Shown piece by piece: positions 7,673 to 28,621 of a DNA stretch of 40,503 nucleotides; position 1 is the first letter of the stretch; each line of letters begins with the position of its first letter. The notes beneath the pieces are model-generated. The model searched no databases. It saw only the letters and a list, made by a program, of their open reading frames with translations, and was not told the DNA's origin. The stretch is taken from the NCBI GenBank assembly GCA_027487835.1, contig JAIYCU010000015.1:1-40503 (forward strand). The letters run 5' to 3'. This DNA is from Bacteroidota bacterium. Lineage in GTDB: Bacteria; Bacteroidota; Bacteroidia; UKL13-3. The position numbers were made by a program, and so were the translations under genes.

Positions 7673-8476
7673 GTGTCAATTTTTTTAAAAGGAGTGATAA
7701 TGGTCTTTGCATTTTTTATATGCAGTGAATCAGTATTGGGTCAAACCGAAAAAAAAGACTCATTGGTTTGGAATGGCTCAAAGTATGTGCCTTTTTCTTC
7801 TATTCCAGTAGATACAATTTTGTTCGACTTTGATAAAGATTTGAGTTTGCAGATTTATCCATTAGACTCAATTATAAAGGCTGCTGTGCTGTATTCACCC
7901 TCTTTAAAGTTTGAAGATGCCTCAATAGAAAAGGCAATGTATAACTTAAAGTATACGCGTTATTTATGGATGAATGGCATTACAGGATTTTACAATTATA
8001 GCTTTGGAAATCAAACCAATTTAAATTCAATTGACAATAATTCTGCGATATTAAATAACAGTCTAGGATTGGGTTATAGATATGGGTTTAATGTAGTTTT
8101 TCCTTTAACAGAATTATTTGGCAGGCCTAATCGGATGAAGCAATTGCGATCTGAACATGAAATGGCCATTTATAAAAAGGAAGAACGTCAAATAGAATTA
8201 GAGCAAAGGGTAATTACAGCTTATTTTAATTTGTTAAATGCCCAAAAGCAAATGAAGATTAGGGTTCAGGATACAGAAAGTGCAAAATTAACCGTTGAGA
8301 TTGCTATGGTGGAAATGAGAAGAGGGAAGATTCATCCTTCTGAATTATCTAGGTTGAAGAATATTCATGCGTTGTCTGAGTCTAATCTTGAAATGTCTAG
8401 AAGAGATTTTATGATATATTATTATCAATTAGAGTCCTTGGTAGGTAAAAAGTTAAGTAAATTTAAAAAATTGTAG
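7673..8476 (+). CDS. half-length TolC-family outer-membrane factor
   Basis: This is a 267-aa exported protein. The GTG at 7673 gives a signal peptide with a lysine-containing n-region (MSIFLKGVIMVFAFF...VLGQ). ATG at 7700 is an alternative that still leaves a short signal peptide. The body has the OEP/TolC layout in a single copy: SLKFEDASIEKAMYNLKYTR, a barrel-like FYNYSFGN segment, then long helices ELEQRVITAYFNLLNAQKQM and AMVEMRRGKIHPSELSRLKN. TolC proteins usually have two such repeats and about 430-480 residues, so this is about half size with no frameshift scar visible. It sits 11 bases before the Wzz-like gene and so probably serves polysaccharide export. A one-mismatch copy of the iterated word (7738-7747) sits at the end of the signal peptide. 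Confidence 0.65.
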   Translation: MSIFLKGVIMVFAFFICSESVLGQTEKKDSLVWNGSKYVPFSSIPVDTILFDFDKDLSLQIYPLDSIIKAAVLYSPSLKFEDASIEKAMYNLKYTRYLWMNGITGFYNYSFGNQTNLNSIDNNSAILNNSLGLGYRYGFNVVFPLTELFGRPNRMKQLRSEHEMAIYKKEERQIELEQRVITAYFNLLNAQKQMKIRVQDTESAKLTVEIAMVEMRRGKIHPSELSRLKNIHALSESNLEMSRRDFMIYYYQLESLVGKKLSKFKKL

Positions 8477-8487
8477 AAATATAAGAG

Positions 8488-10698
8488 ATGACTTTAATAG
8501 GCTTTTTTAGGATTATCATTAATAAACTCAAGTGGTTGGTATTGTTTCCATCCATGTTGGCTATAATGGTAATGTACCTAACACGCAACATGCCTAAAGA
8601 GTATCAATCTTCAGCTACAGTTTATACTGGTTTAGCCTCTGGATACAGCATTACCGATGATGGCAATGAAAAGGTCGATTATTTTGCGGTTAATAATGCT
8701 TTTGATAACTTAATTACCACCGTAAAATCAAGAGAAACTTTAGAAGAGGTTTCTATCAAATTAATTGCACAGCATTTATTGCTAAGAGAACCTAATAAGG
8801 ATATACTAGGTGAAAAAGGATTTGAAGAAATTCATCGTATTCTTGACATGAATGAAATTGCTAAGTTAATTGTGCCAGGAAATTTTGAAAAAACAGTTGC
8901 TAAACTATATTCTATAAAAGATAGTAGTAATAGAAACATTGTGCAGTATTTGCTTACGGATGCAGCAAGTCCTTATGCAATTAATAAGATTTCTGGTAAT
9001 GTTACAGTAGCAAGAAAGAGTAATTCTGACATGTTGGAGATAGGGTATAAAACCAATGATCCTGCGGTTTGTGTGCATACACTTAAGTTTTTAATTGACG
9101 CATTTTCTTACCGGTATAAGAACATTAAAGGTTCAGAAACTGTAAACGTTGTGAAGTATTTTGAAGAGCAAATGAAAGCGGCCTTTGAGAGTTTACAAGG
9201 CTCTGAAAATAAGTTAAGAGATTTTGGAGTAAATAATAAAATCATCAATTACAATGAGCAATCTAAGTTTGTGGCAGAATCAAAAGAAGATTTATCTACC
9301 GACTTTTACAAGGAAAAGATGAAGCTTGAAGCGGCTGTAAAGGCCATTAAGCGCATTGAAGAAAAGATGAATAATTACAGTGATTTTGTTTCTGCCAATG
9401 ATGATTTAATGAATTTGAGGCAAGAATTATCAACCCTTAATTATAAAATTACCAATGCCCAAATTTTTAAATATGACGCAGAAAGCATTGGTTCCTTACA
9501 AGATAATGCCGATAAAGTAAAACTCGAGCTGAAAGAAAAAGCGCGGGATTATTATGAATTTAACAACTCAATTGAATGGGTGCCACAAGAAGCAATTTTA
9601 AATGAATGGTTAGTAAAAGTGGTCGAGCTTGAAGAGAGCAAAGGAAGATTGCAGGTATATGAAGACCGAATAAAACAATATGATGGTATTTATAAGGAGT
9701 TTGCACCTTTAGGTTCAACTCTTAACAGATTAGAGCGTGAGGTTGGTGTACAAGAAAAACAATATTTATCTGTTTTGCACGGTTTGAACCTAGCCAGGTT
9801 GCGTCAACAAAGTTTGGAGATGAGCAACCAGTTAAAAATAGTTGATAATCCCTTTTTTCCACTTAATCCTAATCCTTCTAAGAGGGGATTGTTAATTGTG
9901 GTTTCCTTTCTTGCTGGGTTTATTATTTTATTAGGCTACCATGTTGGGGGAGCCATTTTGGATAATACCATTAAATCACCGGATAGGGTGGCAAAAATGA
10001 TCGACTTGCCTTTATTAAGTGCATTCCCAGAGCATGATGCAAGCAATGTAAAAGGGGTAAAAGTGGATGAAATGCGAAATAGTTTATTGCAACAAGTAAT
10101 CAATACCTTGTTTATTGACTTGAAGAAAATAGATCCGCAGGCAAAACGTTACACTATCATCATTTTTAGTACGCAAGGGCAAGTTGGTAAGAGTTATGTT
10201 GCTGCAAGTATTGTTAATAAACTGAGTAGGATTCGCAAAAAAGTAATTTACCTGCACCCAGATGTAAGCAATAAATCGGGTAAGTACCTCGATTCAAATA
10301 ATCCTAAATTATTGAGCTATAAATACAAGGTGAATGATGGTATTATTGACTACAATAGTGTGCTAGATTTTATTACTACAGCAGAAAATTCTTCTCCCGA
10401 CCTAAACGATGTCTCTTACAATGTAATAGAAATTCCGCGTTTAAGTAAATACCCTATACCTGCTAATTTAGTAGAGCAAGCACATTATTCTATCTTGGTA
10501 GCAGATGCCAGCAGATCTTGGACAAGTGCGGATAATTTTCTAATGAATACATATTTGAAACTAGCCCAAGGGAAGGTGAGCGTTTTGTTAAATCATGTTG
10601 CCCCAGATTTGCTTGAACCAATTTATGGAGAAATTCCAAAGCGTAGGTCTTTATTAAGAAGAAGATTCAAAGCTTTGTTGGGTGGCGATAAATATTAA
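8488..10698 (+). CDS. Wzz/GumC-type polysaccharide co-polymerase with a degenerate BY-kinase domain
   Basis: This 736-aa inner-membrane protein has a first helix at about residues 13-33, a long periplasmic coiled-coil region (about 220-440) and a second helix at about 467-491 preceded by the proline-rich NPFFPLNPNPSKRG. This is the Wzz topology that sets polysaccharide chain length. The cytoplasmic domain resembles bacterial tyrosine kinases: a P-loop at STQGQVGKS (561-569), a Walker A' equivalent VIYLHPD (586-592) and a Walker B equivalent VIEIPRL (646-652). In active BY-kinases the last two normally read like VIDxD and VIIDTPP, so the expected first Walker A' and Walker B aspartates are not conserved. 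No C-terminal tyrosine cluster is present. I infer a structural or weakly active ATPase domain. Confidence 0.8.
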   Translation: MTLIGFFRIIINKLKWLVLFPSMLAIMVMYLTRNMPKEYQSSATVYTGLASGYSITDDGNEKVDYFAVNNAFDNLITTVKSRETLEEVSIKLIAQHLLLREPNKDILGEKGFEEIHRILDMNEIAKLIVPGNFEKTVAKLYSIKDSSNRNIVQYLLTDAASPYAINKISGNVTVARKSNSDMLEIGYKTNDPAVCVHTLKFLIDAFSYRYKNIKGSETVNVVKYFEEQMKAAFESLQGSENKLRDFGVNNKIINYNEQSKFVAESKEDLSTDFYKEKMKLEAAVKAIKRIEEKMNNYSDFVSANDDLMNLRQELSTLNYKITNAQIFKYDAESIGSLQDNADKVKLELKEKARDYYEFNNSIEWVPQEAILNEWLVKVVELEESKGRLQVYEDRIKQYDGIYKEFAPLGSTLNRLEREVGVQEKQYLSVLHGLNLARLRQQSLEMSNQLKIVDNPFFPLNPNPSKRGLLIVVSFLAGFIILLGYHVGGAILDNTIKSPDRVAKMIDLPLLSAFPEHDASNVKGVKVDEMRNSLLQQVINTLFIDLKKIDPQAKRYTIIIFSTQGQVGKSYVAASIVNKLSRIRKKVIYLHPDVSNKSGKYLDSNNPKLLSYKYKVNDGIIDYNSVLDFITTAENSSPDLNDVSYNVIEIPRLSKYPIPANLVEQAHYSILVADASRSWTSADNFLMNTYLKLAQGKVSVLLNHVAPDLLEPIYGEIPKRRSLLRRRFKALLGGDKY
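9781..9790 (+). repeat. iterated word, exact copy inside the co-polymerase gene
   Basis: Reads GGTTTGAACC and encodes Gly-Leu-Asn within LHGLNLARL, in a cytosolic or coiled-coil context rather than a signal peptide. Confidence 0.8.
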
Positions 10699-10709
10699 TT
10701 TCTATTCAT

Positions 10710-12260
10710 TTGCTTTCTCTTAACCAAAATAAGTATACCAAAGAGATTGTCCCATTGATTGGGTTCATATTATTAGCGGCCATAATGGGCTATATCATAA
10801 ACAAAGGTCAAATTGTAGGTGCTGGTTTTTTTATTGCATTACCTTTTATCTTAGCCTTTTTAATTTGGGTATTTAGAGACCCTAAAATTGGGGTGCTCTC
10901 AATTTTACATTTTTCCTTTTTAGCCAATGGTTTAGGGCGTTTTCTGCCTGGTGGAATTCCCTTTGGATTGTTTGTAGATGGCCTGCTTATACTCACCATA
11001 GTATCTACTATTTTTAAGATCAATAAAAAGCAAGCAAAGCTGATGTTTAATCCACTGTTTTACATCTTATTTGTATGGTTTTTATATACCTTGTTTGAAT
11101 TGGTTAATCCAGAGGCAAAGAGCAAAGAAGCCTGGTTTTATGCGGTAAGGGGTGTTTCACTTTATCAAATACAGCTCATTCCTTTGATATTAATTTTGAT
11201 GAATAAAAAGGAAGACATGGATCAAGTGATTCGAATTTGGTTTATTTGGTCATTGGTTGCTGCCTTTTATGGTTTTAAGATGAACTTGATAGGCGTAACT
11301 GGCGGAGAACGCAAGTGGTTAGATGAGGGAGGAAAGATTACCCATGAAATTCACGGACGCCTTCGTATTTTTTCTTTCTATAGCGATGCAGGTCAGTTTG
11401 GAGCGGCCATGGCGCATACCACCTTAAGCGCAATGCTTATGGCCATTGGGCCTTATCCTAACAAGCAGAAATATTTTTATTGGTTTGTGACAGCAGTTTG
11501 TTTCTGGGGTTATGCACTATCTGGCTCGCGCGGACCATTATTTGTGCTGGCAGCGGGTGGTTTTCTTTATTTATTTATGATTGGTAATTTTAGAATTGTA
11601 TTGCTTGGAGCGGCCATAGGTGGATTACTTTTTGGAATATTAAAGTTTACCTCAATTGGGAGTTCTAATTATCAAATTCAACGCATGCGAACGGCGCTCG
11701 ATCCTAATGATGCTTCTTTGCAAGTGCGAATAGAAAATCAAAAAAAGCTAGCAGTTTATTTGGCTTCACGACCCATGGGCGGAGGAATTGGCTCGGGTGG
11801 AAATTGGGGTGCTAGGTTTTCGCCTGGTTCGTTTTTATCTCAAGTAGCCTTGGATAGTTGGTATGTTAAAATTTGGGTAGAGACAGGAATAATTGGACTA
11901 ATCTTGCATATCATCACCTTAGTGTTAATTTTAATCATTGGAATTATTAAGGTTTATCGACTTCATGATCCAGATATCCGGCAGCGCTTAATTGCCCTAA
12001 TTTGCGGGTATTTTGGAATAGTTATGGCTAGTTACGGGAATCAAATTTTAGGGCAAATGCCAACTGGTATTGTCATTTACTTTTCTATGGTATATATGTT
12101 TTTATGTACAGAATGGGATAAGGAGTTATTGGCCAAAAAGCAACTTGGTTCAAACCAAAACTTAGCCTTAGCAAAACAAAATAATACTTCCTTATTAGTT
12201 GCGGAACCGTTTGAAGTAGGAAATAGGTTAGGTAAAAAAGTACGAGTTAAAATTGCGTAA
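10710..12260 (+). CDS. O-antigen ligase/polymerase (Wzy_C family)
   Basis: This is a 516-aa protein with about ten to twelve membrane helices. The segment GYALSGSRGPLFVLAAGG (near residues 267-284) is the SGSRG hallmark of O-antigen ligase/Wzy_C proteins, and a periplasmic loop with repeated Gly/Arg follows (RPMGGGIGSGGNWG). Such proteins polymerise or ligate lipid-linked sugar repeats at the periplasmic face. It is the third gene of the exopolysaccharide unit, 11 bases after the co-polymerase. The start is probably TTG at 10710, since no ATG exists in frame before residue 25 and the first helix begins at about residue 13. No glycosyltransferase or flippase is nearby, so the unit is a partial export/polymerisation module. 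Confidence 0.8.
   Translation: MLSLNQNKYTKEIVPLIGFILLAAIMGYIINKGQIVGAGFFIALPFILAFLIWVFRDPKIGVLSILHFSFLANGLGRFLPGGIPFGLFVDGLLILTIVSTIFKINKKQAKLMFNPLFYILFVWFLYTLFELVNPEAKSKEAWFYAVRGVSLYQIQLIPLILILMNKKEDMDQVIRIWFIWSLVAAFYGFKMNLIGVTGGERKWLDEGGKITHEIHGRLRIFSFYSDAGQFGAAMAHTTLSAMLMAIGPYPNKQKYFYWFVTAVCFWGYALSGSRGPLFVLAAGGFLYLFMIGNFRIVLLGAAIGGLLFGILKFTSIGSSNYQIQRMRTALDPNDASLQVRIENQKKLAVYLASRPMGGGIGSGGNWGARFSPGSFLSQVALDSWYVKIWVETGIIGLILHIITLVLILIIGIIKVYRLHDPDIRQRLIALICGYFGIVMASYGNQILGQMPTGIVIYFSMVYMFLCTEWDKELLAKKQLGSNQNLALAKQNNTSLLVAEPFEVGNRLGKKVRVKIA
12147..12156 (+). repeat. iterated word, exact copy inside the O-antigen ligase gene
   Basis: Reads GGTTCAAACC and encodes part of LGSNQN in the hydrophilic C-terminal tail. 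Confidence 0.8.
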
Positions 12261-15894: not shown

Positions 15895-17784
15895 TCAATT
15901 ATAAATTCTAACCCTAAAACCAAATCTAAATGCCCTGATTGGAAGTGGGTGATTAGGTGTTAAGTAGAAACCTTTATTATTCCAATCCATATTTAAGTGT
16001 TCCATTTTAAAGAAGAATACCATGGTTAATACTTTCACATTAACAAAGGCATCTACCAGCGGGTAATTTCCTACTCTGTATTGGTTTTGTAAATAAAATG
16101 CCCTCGCCGCAGGATTCCAGGCATAGGCTTCCCAAGACGAATTATAATTAATATTTGTACCTAACTCAACATTGAGTGCCTTTTTAAATAATTCTGCATG
16201 GATATAGTATCTAATGTTTCCTCCAAATTCTGGGAGTCTAACATACTCTCTATTTGTGTTTTGAAGGAAGAGATTGTGTTCTAATCTAAGTATTCCCATT
16301 TGAAAGGTTTTACTGGCCTCTAAGTTATTTACTAAAAGTATATCACTGCTTTGTATAGGCTTAACATTATTATCAAAATAGACCCAATTAGCAACTATGT
16401 ATTGGTTAAAGCGAAGGTGAAAATTGTTTCTAAATCCTCTTGTGCTTAAACCTGCTCTCCAATTTAACACAGTTATTTTTGAATAGTTATTAGTCCAATT
16501 AAAACTTGAAGAGTTAAAGTTTGCAAGGGTATAATCAACTGCTCTTAATTGGTTGGTGAGGCCTGCTGTTAAAGAGAATTTCTTACTTCTAAATAAAACA
16601 TCGCCACTCAGTTTTAGATCATTTTGATTATAGCCGATTGGATTATAAGCTGCCAATAGGGCAATCCCAATATTATTATCTGTTTTTGGAATTCTTTCTA
16701 ATCTAAATTCTCCCCATACATTTTGAAGGTTTTCGCCAAAGCCTTGCATTTGGGTTTGAATAAATTGGTGGTGGGCAGAAAATGAAAGTAAGCTTAAGTG
16801 TTTATCATTGCTTCTGCTCCAAAGATTATAAGCTAAACTATTGGTATAGGTTTTGGCAGAAATAGAATCGTAGAAGATACCCGAAGAATCTAAGCCAGCT
16901 GATGGAAATAGAAAAGAGGTATCACCAGCAAGGTTGTCAAAAAAATAGGCTTCTCTATGGAAATTAAATGTATGAGAAAGAAAGCCACTCCTTGTAATTG
17001 AAAAACTTGAATCCTCGTCTTGGTGGGTCCAATACTTTTTACCTAAATAATAGTGTTGCTTTACCTGAAGATAAGTTGATTTGTAGCGGCTTTGTGCACC
17101 TATTAATCTAACATCTGATGATTTATCGGTGCCGACTAAGGTTTCAAAAAGAGAATCACTGCGCAAGCCACCATTTTCATTGTTAATACCTCTGTTTCTT
17201 ATAAAGTTTGTTAACAGGCCATATCTTTGATTTTTGCTAAAATAACTTGCAAATAAAGAAGTATTGTAGGCACTTGTTTTTTGGTTAACATAAAATCCTT
17301 CACTTGTTATTCTATCGTAATGTCCACCAATGTTAAGTCGCGGACTCAAATTAAGGGCAGCTTTGATCCCAAATTGCAAAAATTCCCTTTGACCTTGTGT
17401 ATAGATTATATCGGCATAAGGTTTTTTAGCTAAGAAATATTGTGTATTTGAAGGTTTCTTAAAGTAAGTTTCATAGGGATTAAAGGTAAAGTTAAATCCC
17501 ATGCCACGGTCCCAATTAAAAAAAGCATTTCTGCTGGCTGTGCCAATGTTACCTAGGTCTTGAAATACGATATGTTGTTTGTATAATGGATGGTAAATAT
17601 CATCTTTATTGATGGTGGTATCAACTAATTTGTAAGGAATATTTCTTATTAAGTTATAATCTGAAGTATAAAAGGTAATGTATTTTTCTAAGGCAGATGA
17701 ATCAATTTGTGCTTGCGAACTTTTGGTAAGCAGTAAAATCAAAGCTGTAAACAGCAAGTAGAAAGTGCTAGATTTGATATTCAC
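15895..17784 (-). CDS. Bacteroidota putative porin
   Basis: This is a 629-aa outer-membrane beta-barrel with a signal peptide ending near SSQAQ (about residue 26). The early block YHPLYKQHIVFQDLGNIGTASRNAFFNWDR is the signature of the putative porin family common in Bacteroidota. The rest is a long run of amphipathic strands ending in FRFGFRVRIYN, a C-terminal strand with alternating aromatic residues suited to barrel assembly. Its ATG overlaps the stop of the preceding choice-of-anchor B gene by four bases, so the two are probably translated together. The transported solute is unknown. Confidence 0.82.
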   Translation of the reverse strand: MNIKSSTFYLLFTALILLLTKSSQAQIDSSALEKYITFYTSDYNLIRNIPYKLVDTTINKDDIYHPLYKQHIVFQDLGNIGTASRNAFFNWDRGMGFNFTFNPYETYFKKPSNTQYFLAKKPYADIIYTQGQREFLQFGIKAALNLSPRLNIGGHYDRITSEGFYVNQKTSAYNTSLFASYFSKNQRYGLLTNFIRNRGINNENGGLRSDSLFETLVGTDKSSDVRLIGAQSRYKSTYLQVKQHYYLGKKYWTHQDEDSSFSITRSGFLSHTFNFHREAYFFDNLAGDTSFLFPSAGLDSSGIFYDSISAKTYTNSLAYNLWSRSNDKHLSLLSFSAHHQFIQTQMQGFGENLQNVWGEFRLERIPKTDNNIGIALLAAYNPIGYNQNDLKLSGDVLFRSKKFSLTAGLTNQLRAVDYTLANFNSSSFNWTNNYSKITVLNWRAGLSTRGFRNNFHLRFNQYIVANWVYFDNNVKPIQSSDILLVNNLEASKTFQMGILRLEHNLFLQNTNREYVRLPEFGGNIRYYIHAELFKKALNVELGTNINYNSSWEAYAWNPAARAFYLQNQYRVGNYPLVDAFVNVKVLTMVFFFKMEHLNMDWNNKGFYLTPNHPLPIRAFRFGFRVRIYN

Positions 17785-19178
17785 AGTTTGATGAGCTTCT
17801 GAGTTAAGGTTTGATTTTTATTGTTAATCGTAACTGAATAGACACCTGGTTTCCAGTTATCGACTGAAACTTCAAAGGTAGGTTGGGAGATTGGTTTCTG
17901 CAAAATCAATTCACCCAAACTATTAACGATGCAGATATTGGCATTTTCACTTAGTTCAAGCCCTAATTTTACTTGAAATGTGTGAAGGGTAGGGTTGGGA
18001 AATAATTCAACTTTTCTTTCTAAAGCAAGGCTGGTCAAGTTTGTTATTTCATTGCTAGGCTTAAGGGTAAAGATTCCTTCTTGCATATCAGAAACTGCAA
18101 TGGTGCCAGATGGAAACCATGGGTAAATTCCCCAACAACCATTAAACCCTTCGTAGCTTGCGGGTGGAAAAGGGAAAGTCCTATAATGGCCAACTTGGGT
18201 AGGATTAAATGGATTTTTTAAATCAAAAATTACGAAGCCGTCATGATAATATGAAACATAAGCAAAATCACCCACCCAAAAAGCATTGTGGGCAGTTGCG
18301 GTGGGACTCGATTCAAATTTGCTTACTAATTTAGGGTCGAATAAATTGCTAACATCAAAAATCTTTATGGCTAAACCATTGGGAACTTCATCCGTAAACA
18401 TAATGTATTTTCCATTTGGAGAAAGCCAACTGCTATGGTTATAACCATTTTCTGGGTAATCTGCAATAACAGTAAGTAGGGCCTGTTTGGTTAAATCTCT
18501 CAAATCAAAAACCCATAAACCCGTATACTCTGTAGAGCACCATGCGGTATCATTTCTAACAAAAATTTCATGTACATTTTTAAAAGCAGCAATAGAGCCA
18601 TTAAAACTTGGAACGTTTAAAGTACCTATTTTTATTGGTAATTCAGGGTTTGTGAGGCTTATAATATCTAGGGCATTGGTGATACCAGATTTAGTTCTAT
18701 TGATGCACATGTATAAGCGCTTACTAGCCGCTTCAATAAAAATGCTGTGGGTATTTTGTGCAAGGGTGTCGCTATCATAAACCTTGTGAACAGAATCTGG
18801 GAGATAGCGCAAATCAAACACTTGCAAGCTGCCTAATTCTTTGTTATCACTCACACAATAAACATAATGGCTATAACATTCAAAATCCCGATTTACCATG
18901 CGCTTAGACTTTCCATCTTCAACATCCACCAATACAATGTTTTTAGGATTACTTATGTCAAAAAAATAAATGCTATCGGTACTCCCTGCAATGATGTATT
19001 CTTTTTTGGTAATTGAATCGGTATAGCCTGTGAGGTCGCTCCAAATTTGCGAGCCATTTACTCGAGGTAAATTAGGATTTTGCCAATGGTCAAGTAATTC
19101 TATGTTTCTAGACTTATCTTGCGCAAAGGCTTGGTTCAAACCGAAAAAAAATAAAGCAAAAAAAAGGTATTTTACCAT
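17781..19178 (-). CDS. choice-of-anchor B family protein with T9SS sorting domain (copy 2)
   Basis: This 465-aa protein begins with signal peptide MVKYLFFALFFFGLNQAFAQ. The body follows the choice-of-anchor B pattern, a beta-propeller-like series of FDISNPKN, LQVFDLRYLPDSVHKVY, HNAFWVGDFAYVSYYHDG and FNGCWGIYPW blocks. A Por-secretion tail begins at about residue 388 with LFPNPTLHTFQV and ends TLTQKLIKL, so the protein should be exported through the outer membrane by T9SS and attached or released. It is clearly a paralogue of the neighbouring gene at 19172-20560 (shared TDSIYFFDI, YLPDSVHKVY, GYNHSSWL). Function of the family is unknown. Its start overlaps the upstream paralogue by seven bases. 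Confidence 0.82.
   Translation of the reverse strand: MVKYLFFALFFFGLNQAFAQDKSRNIELLDHWQNPNLPRVNGSQIWSDLTGYTDSITKKEYIIAGSTDSIYFFDISNPKNIVLVDVEDGKSKRMVNRDFECYSHYVYCVSDNKELGSLQVFDLRYLPDSVHKVYDSDTLAQNTHSIFIEAASKRLYMCINRTKSGITNALDIISLTNPELPIKIGTLNVPSFNGSIAAFKNVHEIFVRNDTAWCSTEYTGLWVFDLRDLTKQALLTVIADYPENGYNHSSWLSPNGKYIMFTDEVPNGLAIKIFDVSNLFDPKLVSKFESSPTATAHNAFWVGDFAYVSYYHDGFVIFDLKNPFNPTQVGHYRTFPFPPASYEGFNGCWGIYPWFPSGTIAVSDMQEGIFTLKPSNEITNLTSLALERKVELFPNPTLHTFQVKLGLELSENANICIVNSLGELILQKPISQPTFEVSVDNWKPGVYSVTINNKNQTLTQKLIKL
19133..19142 (-). repeat. iterated word, exact copy in a signal peptide
   Basis: Plus strand reads GGTTCAAACC, followed by GAA. On the coding strand it encodes Gly13-Leu14-Asn15 of the signal peptide. 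Confidence 0.8.
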
Positions 19179-20560
19179 TTCATTATTTTTTTGGTTTGAC
19201 GTCCATTTTCATTCAAAAAAGTAATTAGGTAAATACCTTCTGTTAGGGTTTGTAAATCTATTTGGTTACTGTTTGAACCAATTGTCCCATGCAGGATAAG
19301 GCTGCCAGCTAAGTTGTTAATTTGGTATTGGCAAGTTTCATTTTCTAAGCCAGAAATAGTAGTAAAATCATTGGAAGGGTTAGGGAAAATACCCAAATTA
19401 TTTAAGGGATTATTTTGCTTGGTTTCACCTACTAAACTGCTATCAATTTCGAGCACAAAAATGCCTGCTGTGAGGTCGCTTGCAATAATTCTTTTACTAG
19501 GTAAATAAGGATAAATACCCCAACAGCCTTTAAAGCCGCCATATTGCTCAGGCTCCACAGGATGCGTATCATACCAAGCAACTTGATAAGGTTTTGAAGG
19601 ATCTTTAATATTCCAAACCCTAACGCCATCATGATAGGCAGAAACGTAGGCAAAATCGCCATACCAAAAGGCATTATGGGGCATTGCTGAGGCATTGCTA
19701 TTGAACATGCTTAAAAAGCGCGGTTCTGTAAAGTTTTTAAGGTCATATATTTTGACATCGAGTCCAAGATTTTCATCCGTAAACATGAGATATCTACCTG
19801 TTTTATCTAACCAACTAGAGTGGTTATAACCTCTATCAGGGTATGAATTAATGATGCTTAGAAGACGTTGGTTAGAAAGGTCTTTCAGGTTAAAAATAAA
19901 TAAACCTGCATTTTCGCAACTAAGGTAAACGGTGTCGTTGCGCACAAACATTTCATGAACCGCATTAAACAAATTAAAGTTATTAGGGTCTTTTGGAATT
20001 TGCAATTCAGCCAAAAATTGAGGGTTTTCAGGATTTGAAATGCTTATAACATCTAAGGCAGAAAATCCGCCAGGCTTGGAGTTCATGCTCATATAAAGAC
20101 GAGCTGACAAAGAATCGATAAAAATGGTATGGGTAAAAGTGCCAAGGCTATTACTCTCATAAACTTTATGCACAGAATCTGGTAGGTATTGCAGATCAAA
20201 AATTTGCAAGGCCCCAATGCCAGAAGCTTGATCGGAAACACAATAAGCATAATGCTTGTAGGTTTCATAATCTCTGTTTCTAGCAAAGCGGGAGGCGCCA
20301 TGTTGCCTGGCTACTAGTTTAATTTCATTGGGATCATTTATATCAAAAAAATAAATGCTATCAGTGGTTCCAGCGATGATGTATTCTTTGTTTTTTATTG
20401 GGTCGAACCAACCTGTTAAATCGTTCCAAATATCAGTTACATCAACCTTTGGCAGGAGGGAGTCGTTATAATTTGCAAGCAATTTCATTTTAAAAGCTTG
20501 TTGGCCTGCCACCCAAAAATGGCTAAATAAAATACCGACGATAAGTAATAGTTTTTTCAT
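19172..20560 (-). CDS. choice-of-anchor B family protein with T9SS sorting domain (copy 1)
   Basis: This 462-aa paralogue of the next gene has signal peptide MKKLLLIVGILFSHFWVAGQ. It shows the same ordered blocks: IWNDLTG, TDSIYFFDIND, YCVSDQASGIGALQIFDLQY, LPDSVHKVY, FVRNDTVYLSCENAG, GYNHSSWLDKTGRYLMFTDE, HNAFWYGDFAYVSAYHDG and KGCWGIYPYLPS. A T9SS type A tail starts near residue 388 with LGIFPNPSNDFTTI and ends QTKKIMKW. Tandem placement with overlapping ends indicates local duplication followed by divergence. The signal peptide here lacks the FGLNQ segment found in copy 2, so that segment was gained or lost after duplication. Confidence 0.82.
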   Translation of the reverse strand: MKKLLLIVGILFSHFWVAGQQAFKMKLLANYNDSLLPKVDVTDIWNDLTGWFDPIKNKEYIIAGTTDSIYFFDINDPNEIKLVARQHGASRFARNRDYETYKHYAYCVSDQASGIGALQIFDLQYLPDSVHKVYESNSLGTFTHTIFIDSLSARLYMSMNSKPGGFSALDVISISNPENPQFLAELQIPKDPNNFNLFNAVHEMFVRNDTVYLSCENAGLFIFNLKDLSNQRLLSIINSYPDRGYNHSSWLDKTGRYLMFTDENLGLDVKIYDLKNFTEPRFLSMFNSNASAMPHNAFWYGDFAYVSAYHDGVRVWNIKDPSKPYQVAWYDTHPVEPEQYGGFKGCWGIYPYLPSKRIIASDLTAGIFVLEIDSSLVGETKQNNPLNNLGIFPNPSNDFTTISGLENETCQYQINNLAGSLILHGTIGSNSNQIDLQTLTEGIYLITFLNENGRQTKKIMKW

Positions 20561-26477: not shown

Positions 26478-26924
26478 ATGTTTACAAGCATAAAAAATAA
26501 ATTCATTTGGATGTTATTATGCTTACTCCAAAGCTGCTATTCTGATGATGGCTATTATTATTGGAGGAGCAAACAGGTAGATTATGTGCATACACTTAAG
26601 CCTATAGATTCCCAACAAAAAATAACTTTTATAGCCTATCCAGAAGCCAATAAGAAATTTATAAACGACACCGCAACTGCCGTTCAATTGCTTGTCTCGG
26701 CATACGAAAATTCTTTTGTAGTTATAGGCACCAACACAGATACATTTGAACTTTTGCTAAACCCGCAACTTGGCAACACGTCAGACCCTAAATATATTCT
26801 ATATCAAGGCTATAAAATTCTTCAAAATGATTTTAATTCTTACTATAAAACTTCTACAGTAGAAGGCGGTAAAGATCAATGGAATAATTATACATTTCTT
26901 TTAGATACATTATACTTTAAATGA
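26478..26924 (+). CDS. uncharacterised lipoprotein, first gene of an unassigned envelope operon
   Basis: This 148-aa protein has a short lipoprotein signal (MFTSIKNKFIWMLLCLLQSC) and the putative lipidated Cys20. The mature part is rich in Tyr and Asn and looks beta-rich (KITFIAYPEA, ATAVQLLVSAYENSFVVIGT, YTFLLDTLYFK). I recognise no family. Its stop overlaps the next gene by four bases. The 68-base region before it is divergent from the asparaginase gene and probably holds the operon promoter, though no exact TAnnTTTG element is present there. Confidence 0.6.
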   Translation: MFTSIKNKFIWMLLCLLQSCYSDDGYYYWRSKQVDYVHTLKPIDSQQKITFIAYPEANKKFINDTATAVQLLVSAYENSFVVIGTNTDTFELLLNPQLGNTSDPKYILYQGYKILQNDFNSYYKTSTVEGGKDQWNNYTFLLDTLYFK

Positions 26925-27598
26925 AATACCATTTCATATTTATATTATTGTTGGGTTTCGGGTTGAACCAAGCCTTCGGACAACTTTTTATTCAAAATAA
27001 TACTCGAAATTTTATTGGTGTAGGATTAAATTCAGACCCTGGAAAACCTATTGAGTTGCGTTATGCAAGAATTACTCCCCAACGATTGGGCAACTTACAA
27101 TTGAAGCTCGCTCCTGGTTATAAAATAGTTGAAGCAGTTACCTATCCAGCCTACTATCCTATAAGTGTAAGGGGAACTGGCACACTTTTTACCAACAAAA
27201 TGTTAAAATTTGTTTGCATAGAACCAGGCCTATTATTCCCGCGAAAAAAGCAAAATTTTAGAAGATCTTTTATGGCGTTTAACTTTCCCATGTGTTTTAC
27301 TCAAATAAATACTTATAAAAATTTTTGGTACGACCCTTTGTTTGATAATCAATTAAGAATTAATCGTGATCCCAAATTACATTTTAATATTTCTGCCGAA
27401 ATAGAATTACTTTGGTCATTTAACATCAGTAAGCAATCTTATGTAGAAACAGGTATTTCTCTTACTATTCCTATTATACATCAAGCATTATTTGGCGAAC
27501 CAATTGGTAAATTTAGTGAAACCAATTATGTGCCTGGTGCGGCCTATTTCCCGTTTATTAATTTTAGTTGTTCCTATAATTTTGCAATACCTCAATGA
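26921..27598 (+). CDS. uncharacterised predicted outer-membrane barrel protein, second gene of the operon
   Basis: This is a 225-aa exported protein with signal peptide MKYHFIFILLLGFGLNQAFGQ. Alternating strands such as LGNLQLKLAPGYKIVEAVTY, LHFNISAEIELLWSFNIS and QSYVETGISLTIPI, plus the C-terminal FINFSCSYNF, suggest an eight-strand outer-membrane barrel. No family is recognised. It overlaps both neighbours by four bases. The signal peptide carries the FGLNQ segment also seen in the choice-of-anchor B protein, encoded by a one-mismatch copy of the iterated word at 26960-26969. Confidence 0.6.
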   Translation: MKYHFIFILLLGFGLNQAFGQLFIQNNTRNFIGVGLNSDPGKPIELRYARITPQRLGNLQLKLAPGYKIVEAVTYPAYYPISVRGTGTLFTNKMLKFVCIEPGLLFPRKKQNFRRSFMAFNFPMCFTQINTYKNFWYDPLFDNQLRINRDPKLHFNISAEIELLWSFNISKQSYVETGISLTIPIIHQALFGEPIGKFSETNYVPGAAYFPFINFSCSYNFAIPQ

Positions 27599-28098
27599 AA
27601 CATGTTGCAATCATCCTAATGCTTATAATTAAATGGTCACAATCGCTTTTGGGTCAAACCGAACCTACCTTTGCCAATGATTATAGAAAGGTTTATAAAA
27701 TTAAACAAGGTCGGCGAATATATGTGCAACACATAAGCGATGCCCCTGGAGAGGTAACAAAATGTAGAGTTATAGACCTTAATGATTCACTCATAACCTT
27801 AAAAACTAAAGCCAATTTAGTAATTATTTTTCCAAATAACGAGATAGTAGGTTGTTGGGTTATAGATGCAAAAGCCAAGGCGAAAATGGTGGTTAAAGGT
27901 GCTATTGGCCTCACCTGGTTTTTTGTGGGTGTTGGATTAAGTGCTGCATATTATGGAGAAGAAGCTTGGATTCAAGCAATCAATATTACTGCTATGACGG
28001 GTGGCTTATATGCAATATACCAAGCAAACCCAAAAGCAAATGCTACTAAAGTAAACCTAAGTAAAGACAAAATTTATTTTAAAAGACATGCGTACTAA
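27595..28098 (+). CDS. uncharacterised exported protein with two hydrophobic helices, third gene of the operon
   Basis: This is a 167-aa protein with signal peptide MKHVAIILMLIIKWSQSLLGQ. The mature N-terminal half is beta-rich and charged (KVYKIKQGRRIYVQHI, CRVIDLNDSLITLKTK), like a small SH3- or PilZ-like module. The C-terminal half holds two hydrophobic segments (GAIGLTWFFVGVGLSAAYYG and INITAMTGGLYAIYQ). The same plan recurs in the next gene, so the two look like distant paralogues. No family is recognised. A one-mismatch iterated word (27651-27660) lies at the signal-peptide end. Confidence 0.6.
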   Translation: MKHVAIILMLIIKWSQSLLGQTEPTFANDYRKVYKIKQGRRIYVQHISDAPGEVTKCRVIDLNDSLITLKTKANLVIIFPNNEIVGCWVIDAKAKAKMVVKGAIGLTWFFVGVGLSAAYYGEEAWIQAINITAMTGGLYAIYQANPKANATKVNLSKDKIYFKRHAY

Positions 28099-28621
28099 AC
28101 TGTTAATGGTTTTGGGATTATTTGTTAGCATTCAACTTACGGCCCAAATGGCCAAGAGGCCTCATGTTACCCTATACCATAATATTTCCGGAAAAAACGC
28201 TATTCTGAATTTTAATGAACAATATTGGGTGCAACTTCATGTAACTGCCTTTGAAAAGCTAAATAATTTTACATTACAAGATAGCACTTCAACCTATTTA
28301 ACTTTATTGAATCAAATAGGGGATACCCTTGTTTTTAAGGAAGGTAAGTTATTAGCAACTGATATTGACAAGTTGGTATATACCAATCGGGCTACAGAGT
28401 TTTTTATGGTGATGGCTGCAACTGTTTATATGCCGGTATTTGCCACCTTTACTTATATATATCCAGAAGGGCGATTTTATATGTTACTAGCAGTTCCACC
28501 CACCTTAATACTCACAAATATCTTCCTAAGAGGTTTCGAAAGAAAGCTGATTCCATTCAATCAATATCACCTTATACCTCAAAATATACTAGGAAAACCA
28601 CCACACAGAAAATGGTTTTAG
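28088..28621 (+). CDS. uncharacterised exported protein with two hydrophobic helices, fourth gene of the operon
   Basis: This is a 177-aa protein with signal peptide MRTKLLMVLGLFVSIQLTAQ. It has a beta-rich middle (YWVQLHVTAFEKLN, LTLLNQIGDTLVFKEGK) followed by two hydrophobic segments (EFFMVMAATVYMPVFATFTY and YMLLAVPPTLILTNIF) and a basic tail. This matches the layout of the third gene, suggesting duplication and strong divergence. The ORF overlaps the third gene by 11 bases, and no nearer in-frame start would keep the signal peptide. No family is recognised. Confidence 0.6.
   Translation: MRTKLLMVLGLFVSIQLTAQMAKRPHVTLYHNISGKNAILNFNEQYWVQLHVTAFEKLNNFTLQDSTSTYLTLLNQIGDTLVFKEGKLLATDIDKLVYTNRATEFFMVMAATVYMPVFATFTYIYPEGRFYMLLAVPPTLILTNIFLRGFERKLIPFNQYHLIPQNILGKPPHRKWF

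What the first reader, a model, noticed from the sequence alone, without database searches (positions are those of the whole stretch)
26478..28621. Unassigned four-gene envelope operon
Four overlapping genes (overlaps of 4, 4 and 11 bases) encode a lipoprotein, a predicted small outer-membrane barrel and two proteins with the same plan: signal peptide, beta-rich module, then two hydrophobic helices. I recognise no family in any of them. The combination of outer-membrane, lipid-anchored and paired inner-membrane-like parts suggests an envelope-spanning assembly. It is the best candidate in the window for an undescribed system.
Basis: partly seen in the sequence, partly recalled or inferred. Interest (0 to 1): 0.55.

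Follow-up and report, generated by a model that had tools for sequence, protein, structure and literature searches.

The report
Surface lipoprotein-barrel pair with two helpers
Four overlapping genes of a Bacteroidota bacterium encode a fast-evolving lipoprotein and a small outer-membrane barrel, a remote version of a widespread but unstudied gene pair, followed by two related small membrane proteins; it is a real, conserved gene set of unknown task rather than a wholly new kind of machine.

Summary
The four genes are real, at the stated coordinates, with the stated overlaps. Lipoprotein (LIP) and barrel (BAR) form a strict pair: in 64 genomes of the family all 33 strong LIP hits lie just before a BAR hit. 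AlphaFold2 of a homologous pair gives a beta-rich lipoprotein and an eight-stranded OmpA-class barrel. Neither protein reaches a Pfam cut-off, but profile comparison without signal peptides links LIP to DUF6452 (E 3.2e-5) and BAR to DUF6048 (E 3.7e-7), which form the same two-gene pair elsewhere in Bacteroidota; no held paper names either. The other two genes are paralogues of a broad unnamed Bacteroidia family (signal peptide, small beta module, hydrophobic hairpin, last strand) and optional companions: two copies after 11 of 35 pairs, one after 4, none after 20. The set occupies one chromosomal slot in 11 of 19 genus genomes (9 seen with both flanks), is tandemly repeated in some, and evolves much faster than its neighbours, yet under constraint. 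Best reading: a small surface-lipoprotein/barrel complex with two helpers. An inner-membrane place for the helpers is not shown, and their hairpin charges argue against it. New variant of a known kind.

The parts
26478..26924 (+). LIP (P1), 148 aa lipoprotein; remote DUF6452 relative; [quoted passage not shown]
26535..26537 (+). codon of the lipid-anchor cysteine (residue 20), followed by YSDDGY
   Evidence: sequence
26921..27598 (+). BAR (P2), 225 aa eight-stranded outer-membrane barrel; remote DUF6048 relative
27332..27343 (+). DPLF, residues 138-141 of BAR, predicted tip of extracellular loop 3 (D138 is invariant in the 34-row alignment)
27595..28098 (+). P3, 167 aa exported small beta module plus hydrophobic hairpin
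27889..28017 (+). hydrophobic hairpin of P3 (residues 99-141 by hydropathy)
28088..28621 (+). P4, 177 aa paralogue of P3
28391..28531 (+). helical hairpin of P4 (residues 102-148)

Best explanation
A diversified form of the DUF6452-DUF6048 gene pair. LIP is exported, lipidated and, by its acidic tail, probably flipped to the cell surface; BAR is an eight-stranded outer-membrane barrel whose extracellular side holds LIP, so that the two make a small surface-lipoprotein/barrel complex that binds something outside or anchors LIP. P3 and P4 are two paralogous helpers (exported small beta module on a membrane hairpin), co-translated by stop-start overlaps, that attach to or stabilise the complex from the envelope side. 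Shown by computation: the pair, its order, folds, homology, constraint, helper family. Inferred: surface exposure, LIP-BAR contact, helper action, ligand.
For: 33 of 33 strong LIP hits lie before a BAR hit in 64 family genomes; 35 of 35 LIP ORFs adjoin BAR, 27 overlapping, 21 by 4 bases. BAR fold: OprF N-domain Z 14.7, rmsd 2.4 over 131 residues; OmpA 14.1. Remote homology without signal peptides: LIP-DUF6452 E 3.2e-5, prob 73; BAR-DUF6048 E 3.7e-7, prob 93. DUF6048 genes have a 150-181 aa ORF directly upstream in 8 of 8 loci; 4 of these ORFs were scanned and all 4 are DUF6452 over cut-off. Acidic tail: window meets the published two-of-six rule; 17 of 33 LIP and 7 of 9 DUF6452 do, against 11% of other 6-mers (rule seen in passages of PMC12578637). 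Among the most conserved BAR positions are predicted extracellular ones (D273, P274, G277, P180, F324, P339 of the model).
Against: 16 of 33 LIP rows miss the two-of-six rule. No contact between LIP and BAR was tested (no interface score available). Extracellular loop L2 is the least conserved region, and L4 varies among the closest three genomes. Helpers are absent after 20 of 35 pairs. Neither window protein reaches Pfam cut-offs, and the 'CG' motif of DUF6452 is absent from the window LIP (one Cys only).
Confidence: 0.55

Rival explanations
1. Envelope-spanning sensing or transport device: LIP-BAR at the outer membrane is linked to P3/P4 hairpins in the inner membrane by their periplasmic modules.
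For: Conserved four-gene order in 11 of 35 pairs, with the two paralogues kept in the same order; signal peptides and hydrophobic hairpins.
Against: Small modules (about 70 residues) that could hardly cross the periplasm alone; no enzyme, channel or regulator in the set; hairpin charges oppose an inner-membrane hairpin with a periplasmic module in 37 of 39 (no control set); pairs without helpers are common.
Confidence: 0.15
2. P3/P4 are unrelated passengers: members of an abundant Bacteroidia family that merely landed downstream of LIP-BAR and work alone.
For: Family profile hits 83 of 395 class genomes; lone copies, e.g. beside a DUF2851-like gene; tandem arrays without LIP-BAR.
Against: Same-strand, overlapping placement after BAR in three genera groups of loci, always downstream; retention of P3-type then P4-type order.
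Confidence: 0.17
3. LIP-BAR is mainly a target or decoy in conflict (phage, predator or bacterial toxin receptor) and its divergence is escape.
For: Protein identity to congeners 40-51% where flanking genes are 74-99%; LIP and BAR dS is raised (1.00, 0.60 against 0.18-0.42 in flanks, G007-G009), as if alleles were replaced; tandem copies. Bacteroidales toxins are known to target single outer-membrane proteins (PMC12853789, abstract and passages).
Against: dN/dS stays at 0.21-0.26; several predicted extracellular positions are among the most conserved; no toxin or phage gene seen in the fetched stretches, PADLOC gave only chance-level matches.
Confidence: 0.1

Closest known systems
DUF6452-DUF6048 gene pair (PF20050, PF19515)
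   Same: Lipoprotein gene directly before, usually overlapping, a barrel gene; colinear remote sequence similarity; shared DPxxG, Glu and PG motifs of the barrel.
   Different: Window proteins below Pfam cut-offs; here tandem copies, companion helper genes and faster divergence; window LIP lacks the Cys-Gly motif.
Surface-lipoprotein/barrel (SLP-barrel) complexes of Bacteroidota, including the putative eight-stranded anchor Bt1926 of the S-layer lipoprotein Bt1927 (PMC12578637, passages)
   Same: Lipoprotein with acidic tail next to an outer-membrane barrel; Bt1926 is also predicted eight-stranded.
   Different: No contact shown here; LIP is about 130 residues, not a 100 kDa S-layer protein; no homology tested between Bt1926 and BAR.
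SlyB, outer-membrane lipoprotein that forms rings round outer-membrane proteins (PMC13067283 one passage; PMC13082787 passages; its hairpin and SH3-like domain are recalled)
   Same: P3/P4 combine a small beta domain with a hydrophobic hairpin and are encoded beside an outer-membrane barrel.
   Different: No lipobox, no Pfam glycine-zipper match, location unknown.
DUF3575 barrels (PF12099)
   Same: The optional ~310 aa barrels beside the set in some relatives resemble DUF3575 (L120 copy E 4.1e-5 over cut-off; others below).
   Different: Not present in the window's set; BAR itself does not match.

Membership tests
DUF6452 (PF20050) | Score over Pfam's gathering cut-off | tested here: not met
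   P0001 none at E<=10; none of 16 relatives at E<=0.05
DUF6452 (PF20050) | Profile-profile homology of the mature domain | tested here: met
   prob 72.7, E 3.2e-5, 93 columns; unrelated pairs prob 0-0.5; 67.2, 5.1e-5
DUF6452 (PF20050) | Internal Cys-Gly motif (invariant in 9 DUF6452 rows) | tested here: not met
   Window LIP has no Cys after the anchor; many relatives keep one
DUF6048 (PF19515) | Score over Pfam's gathering cut-off | tested here: not met
   P0002 none; 0 of 62 genomes of the family over cut-off
DUF6048 (PF19515) | Profile-profile homology | tested here: met
   prob 92.9, E 3.7e-7, 115 columns without signal peptides of BAR; control DUF3575-like barrels 13; 96.3, E 1.7e-9
DUF6452-DUF6048 pair | Lipoprotein gene directly before the barrel gene | tested here: met
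   35 of 35 LIP; 8 of 8 DUF6048 loci
Eight-stranded OmpA-class barrel | Eight antiparallel strands, long alternate loops | tested here: met
   Model of the homologue in L065 (19% identical to P2); window P2 itself not folded
Bacteroidota surface lipoprotein | Two acidic residues in the six after the anchor Cys | tested here: met
   Window CYSDDGY; 17 of 33 relatives
Bacteroidota surface lipoprotein | Exposure at the cell surface | not testable with these tools
   needs shaving or labelling
SlyB / glycine-zipper lipoproteins | Lipobox | tested here: not met
   P3 ...SLLGQTE, P4 ...QLTAQMA, signal peptidase I type ends
SlyB / glycine-zipper lipoproteins | Family profile match | tested here: not met
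   no such family among 40 P3/P4 relatives in Pfam at E<=0.05
SH3/Sm-like small barrels (P3/P4 module) | Fold similarity to solved members | tested here: inconclusive
   Foldseek none at E<=0.001; VIA Z 3.6-4.2 to SP14.3 (1ib8), a NatC chain, MscS, weak
Known secretion, T9SS or Sus systems | Pfam or NCBIfam match of any of the four | tested here: not met

The most novel reading that the evidence does not exclude
P3 and P4 sit in the outer membrane, not the inner one: their hairpins line up round the BAR barrel as a dedicated SlyB-like collar, the first such collar encoded with its own client, giving a tiny self-contained outer-membrane unit of surface lipoprotein, barrel and collar.
Probability: 0.1. 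Interest if true: 0.75.

Novelty: new variant of a known kind. Interest (0 to 1): 0.42.

Why it matters
It ties an unnamed, fast-evolving locus to the DUF6452-DUF6048 pair, two Pfam families with no described function, and shows that lipoprotein and barrel travel together even where sequence similarity has nearly gone. That makes a direct lipoprotein-barrel contact a clear, cheap test. It also outlines a broad Bacteroidia family of exported hairpin proteins that Pfam and NCBIfam do not name, with a charge pattern that raises the question in which membrane they sit.

Tried and rejected
Direct family searches: Pfam, NCBIfam and PADLOC for the four proteins gave nothing above chance; Pfam for 40, 17 and 16 relatives likewise; PDB sequence profiles gave nothing for BAR and LIP and one chance-level match for P3/P4; profiles of DUF6048 and DUF6452 gave none and two chance-level matches.

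A class-wide search with an early BAR profile seemed to confine BAR to one family; a deeper profile found the DUF6048 pair, so the first impression was wrong. The LIP profile found only the own genome in 395 phylum genomes. These searches scored only 7-10 candidates per genome, so absence is weak.

The idea that the N-terminal module of the ~310 aa barrels equals the P3/P4 module was dropped: without signal peptides hhalign gave probability 0.5, although an iterated HMM with signal peptides had joined some. One iterated hit (L069 4751-5182) was dropped by eye as a false member before counting. L166 looked like a bridge between BAR and DUF6048, but only its barrel shows a sub-cut-off Pfam match (E 1.2e-4; DUF3575 also 0.0026); my own profiles did not confirm it, so it is not used as evidence. 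In one search, 10 of 26 DUF6048-set hits and 8 of 19 DUF6452-set hits at E<=1 are outside the families, so those single-protein searches are only supportive.

Promoter and terminator scan: fewer promoter-like sites than in shuffles (6 against 11.5); three terminator-like sites, all on the - strand. Foldseek gave nothing for P4. The LIP fold could not be compared separately, as barrel matches filled the list.

Full report
Observation. The four + strand ORFs and their 4, 4 and 11 base overlaps are as described. The set lies between a divergent asparaginase-like gene and a convergent Sua5/YwlC gene (names by eye from the translations). Pfam and NCBIfam have no family for the proteins above cut-off.

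Recurrence. BAR in 60 relatives gave 17 genomes at E<=1, many weak. Stretches fetched and annotated with iterated profiles (39 loci including the window) contain 35 LIP and 36 BAR ORFs. Every LIP is directly followed by BAR; the one BAR without LIP starts at a contig end. The loci were fetched because of such hits, so the independent test is better: separate LIP and BAR profile searches of the same 64 family genomes gave 33 LIP hits at E<=1e-7, all 33 just upstream of a BAR hit; three of 36 BAR rows had no LIP row (one contig start, one fragment, one whose LIP was found). Four weaker LIP rows (E 8e-4 to 0.007) were not counted; one of them is a true pair (L120).

Units. After 35 LIP-BAR pairs there are two P3/P4-type genes in 11, one in 4, none in 20; three of the 20 end near a contig end (L031, L113, L118), and two of the 11 are near-identical (L026, L028). 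Tandem repetition: two four-gene units in G007, two LIP-BAR in G001, three LIP-BAR-helper triads in G003. Some relatives add ~310 aa barrels upstream, DUF3575-like. The slot between the asparaginase-like gene and Sua5 holds the set in 11 of 19 held genomes of the genus, 9 with both flanks and 2 with the Sua5 side only; others carry it elsewhere. Two congeners have named records, MAGs labelled 'Bacteroidetes bacterium' and 'Chitinophaga pinensis'.

Evolution. Between G007 and G009 dN/dS is 0.21 (LIP), 0.26 (BAR), 0.19 (P3), 0.13 (P4), against 0.008-0.091 for six flanking genes; dS is 1.00, 0.60, 0.37, 0.25 against 0.18-0.42. Against the window, identity is 40-51% for the four and 74-99% for the flanks, but dS is saturated in several of these. 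So the genes are constrained, evolve fast, and LIP-BAR alleles may be exchanged.

Folds. P4 with 40 relatives: mean pLDDT 82.6, split small beta domain with a helical hairpin before its last strand; similarity to SH3/Sm-like barrels is weak. LIP+BAR of L065, read as one chain: mean pLDDT 81.9, LIP with eight strands, BAR an eight-stranded barrel, OmpA class (OprF Z 14.7, OmpA 14.1, OmpW 13.4, OmpX 10.7). The L065 proteins are only 21% and 19% identical to the window's, so the window folds are by homology. No interface score is available. Mapped on the model, the most conserved BAR positions include predicted extracellular ones at the tip of hairpin 5-6 (D273, P274, G277), in L4 (F324, P339) and L1 (P180), and E293 and E295 on strand 6; L2 is the least conserved. 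In the three closest genomes L1 and L3 are kept, L4 is not.

Family. A deeper BAR profile found distant hits in another family of the class. Their proteins are Pfam DUF6048 (E 1.4e-37, 6.3e-32), each preceded by DUF6452 (E 1.4e-7, 2.4e-8). DUF6048 occurs over cut-off in 8 of 90 class genomes and 0 of 62 of the window's family. With signal peptides removed, LIP matches DUF6452 (E 3.2e-5, probability 73) and BAR matches DUF6048 (E 3.7e-7, probability 93), colinearly; crossed pairs stay at or below 0.5, the DUF3575-like barrels reach 13 with BAR and 36 with DUF6048, so part of the barrel signal may be general, but the paired match of both genes in the same order is not. Searches for the two names in the held library returned no paper.

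P3/P4 family. Its profile hits 83 of 395 class genomes at E<=1e-3, many over the signal peptide only; by my reading of the table 43 genomes outside the family have matches over 100 or more of 160 positions. Retested without signal peptides, 13 of 15 loci keep a match, 9 of 11 outside the family. Lone copies sit beside varied genes; four lie directly after a DUF2851-like gene (L072, L139, L142, L145; DUF2851 recalled). In 39 hairpins mean net charge is +1.5 before, -0.4 in the turn and +1.2 after; flank sum exceeds turn in 37 (near-identical rows included, no control set). With an exported beta module this opposes the positive-inside rule.

Context in print. Surface lipoprotein-barrel complexes are described as a hallmark of Bacteroidota, with two acidic residues among the six after the anchor Cys taken as a sign of surface lipoproteins, and an eight-stranded barrel proposed to anchor an S-layer lipoprotein (PMC12578637, passages). 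The lipoprotein export signal was defined in PMC5080379 (passages). SlyB rings round outer-membrane proteins: PMC13067283 (one passage) and PMC13082787 (passages).

Verdict. A conserved, fast-evolving surface-lipoprotein/barrel pair, remote kin of DUF6452-DUF6048, with optional helper paralogues. Function unproven; binding or anchoring at the surface is the most likely.

Noticed in passing
L066 3891-6938; L067, L068, L071: Tandem arrays of six or three P3/P4-type genes with no LIP or BAR in another genus of the family.
   Followed up: partly
L072, L139, L142, L145: A lone P3/P4-type gene directly after a DUF2851-like gene (name recalled) in several genomes of the family: a conserved neighbourhood.
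   Followed up: partly
G000:C1:117066-117518: A further P3/P4 relative in the own genome (E 3.8e-6).
   Followed up: no
L026 3276-6170, L028, L107, L120: One to three ~310 aa barrels with an N-terminal beta module, DUF3575-like, beside LIP-BAR.
   Followed up: partly
LIP of L027, L064, L065, L109-L111, L115-L117: Two cysteines in a row at the lipid anchor in several LIP proteins.
   Followed up: no
window 17781-20560: Two adjacent similar ~460 aa secreted proteins with C-terminal sorting-like ends, apparently a tandem duplication (by eye).
   Followed up: no
window 7673-12260: Outer-membrane-factor-like, chain-length-regulator-like and O-antigen-ligase-like genes in a row (by eye), probably polysaccharide export.
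   Followed up: no
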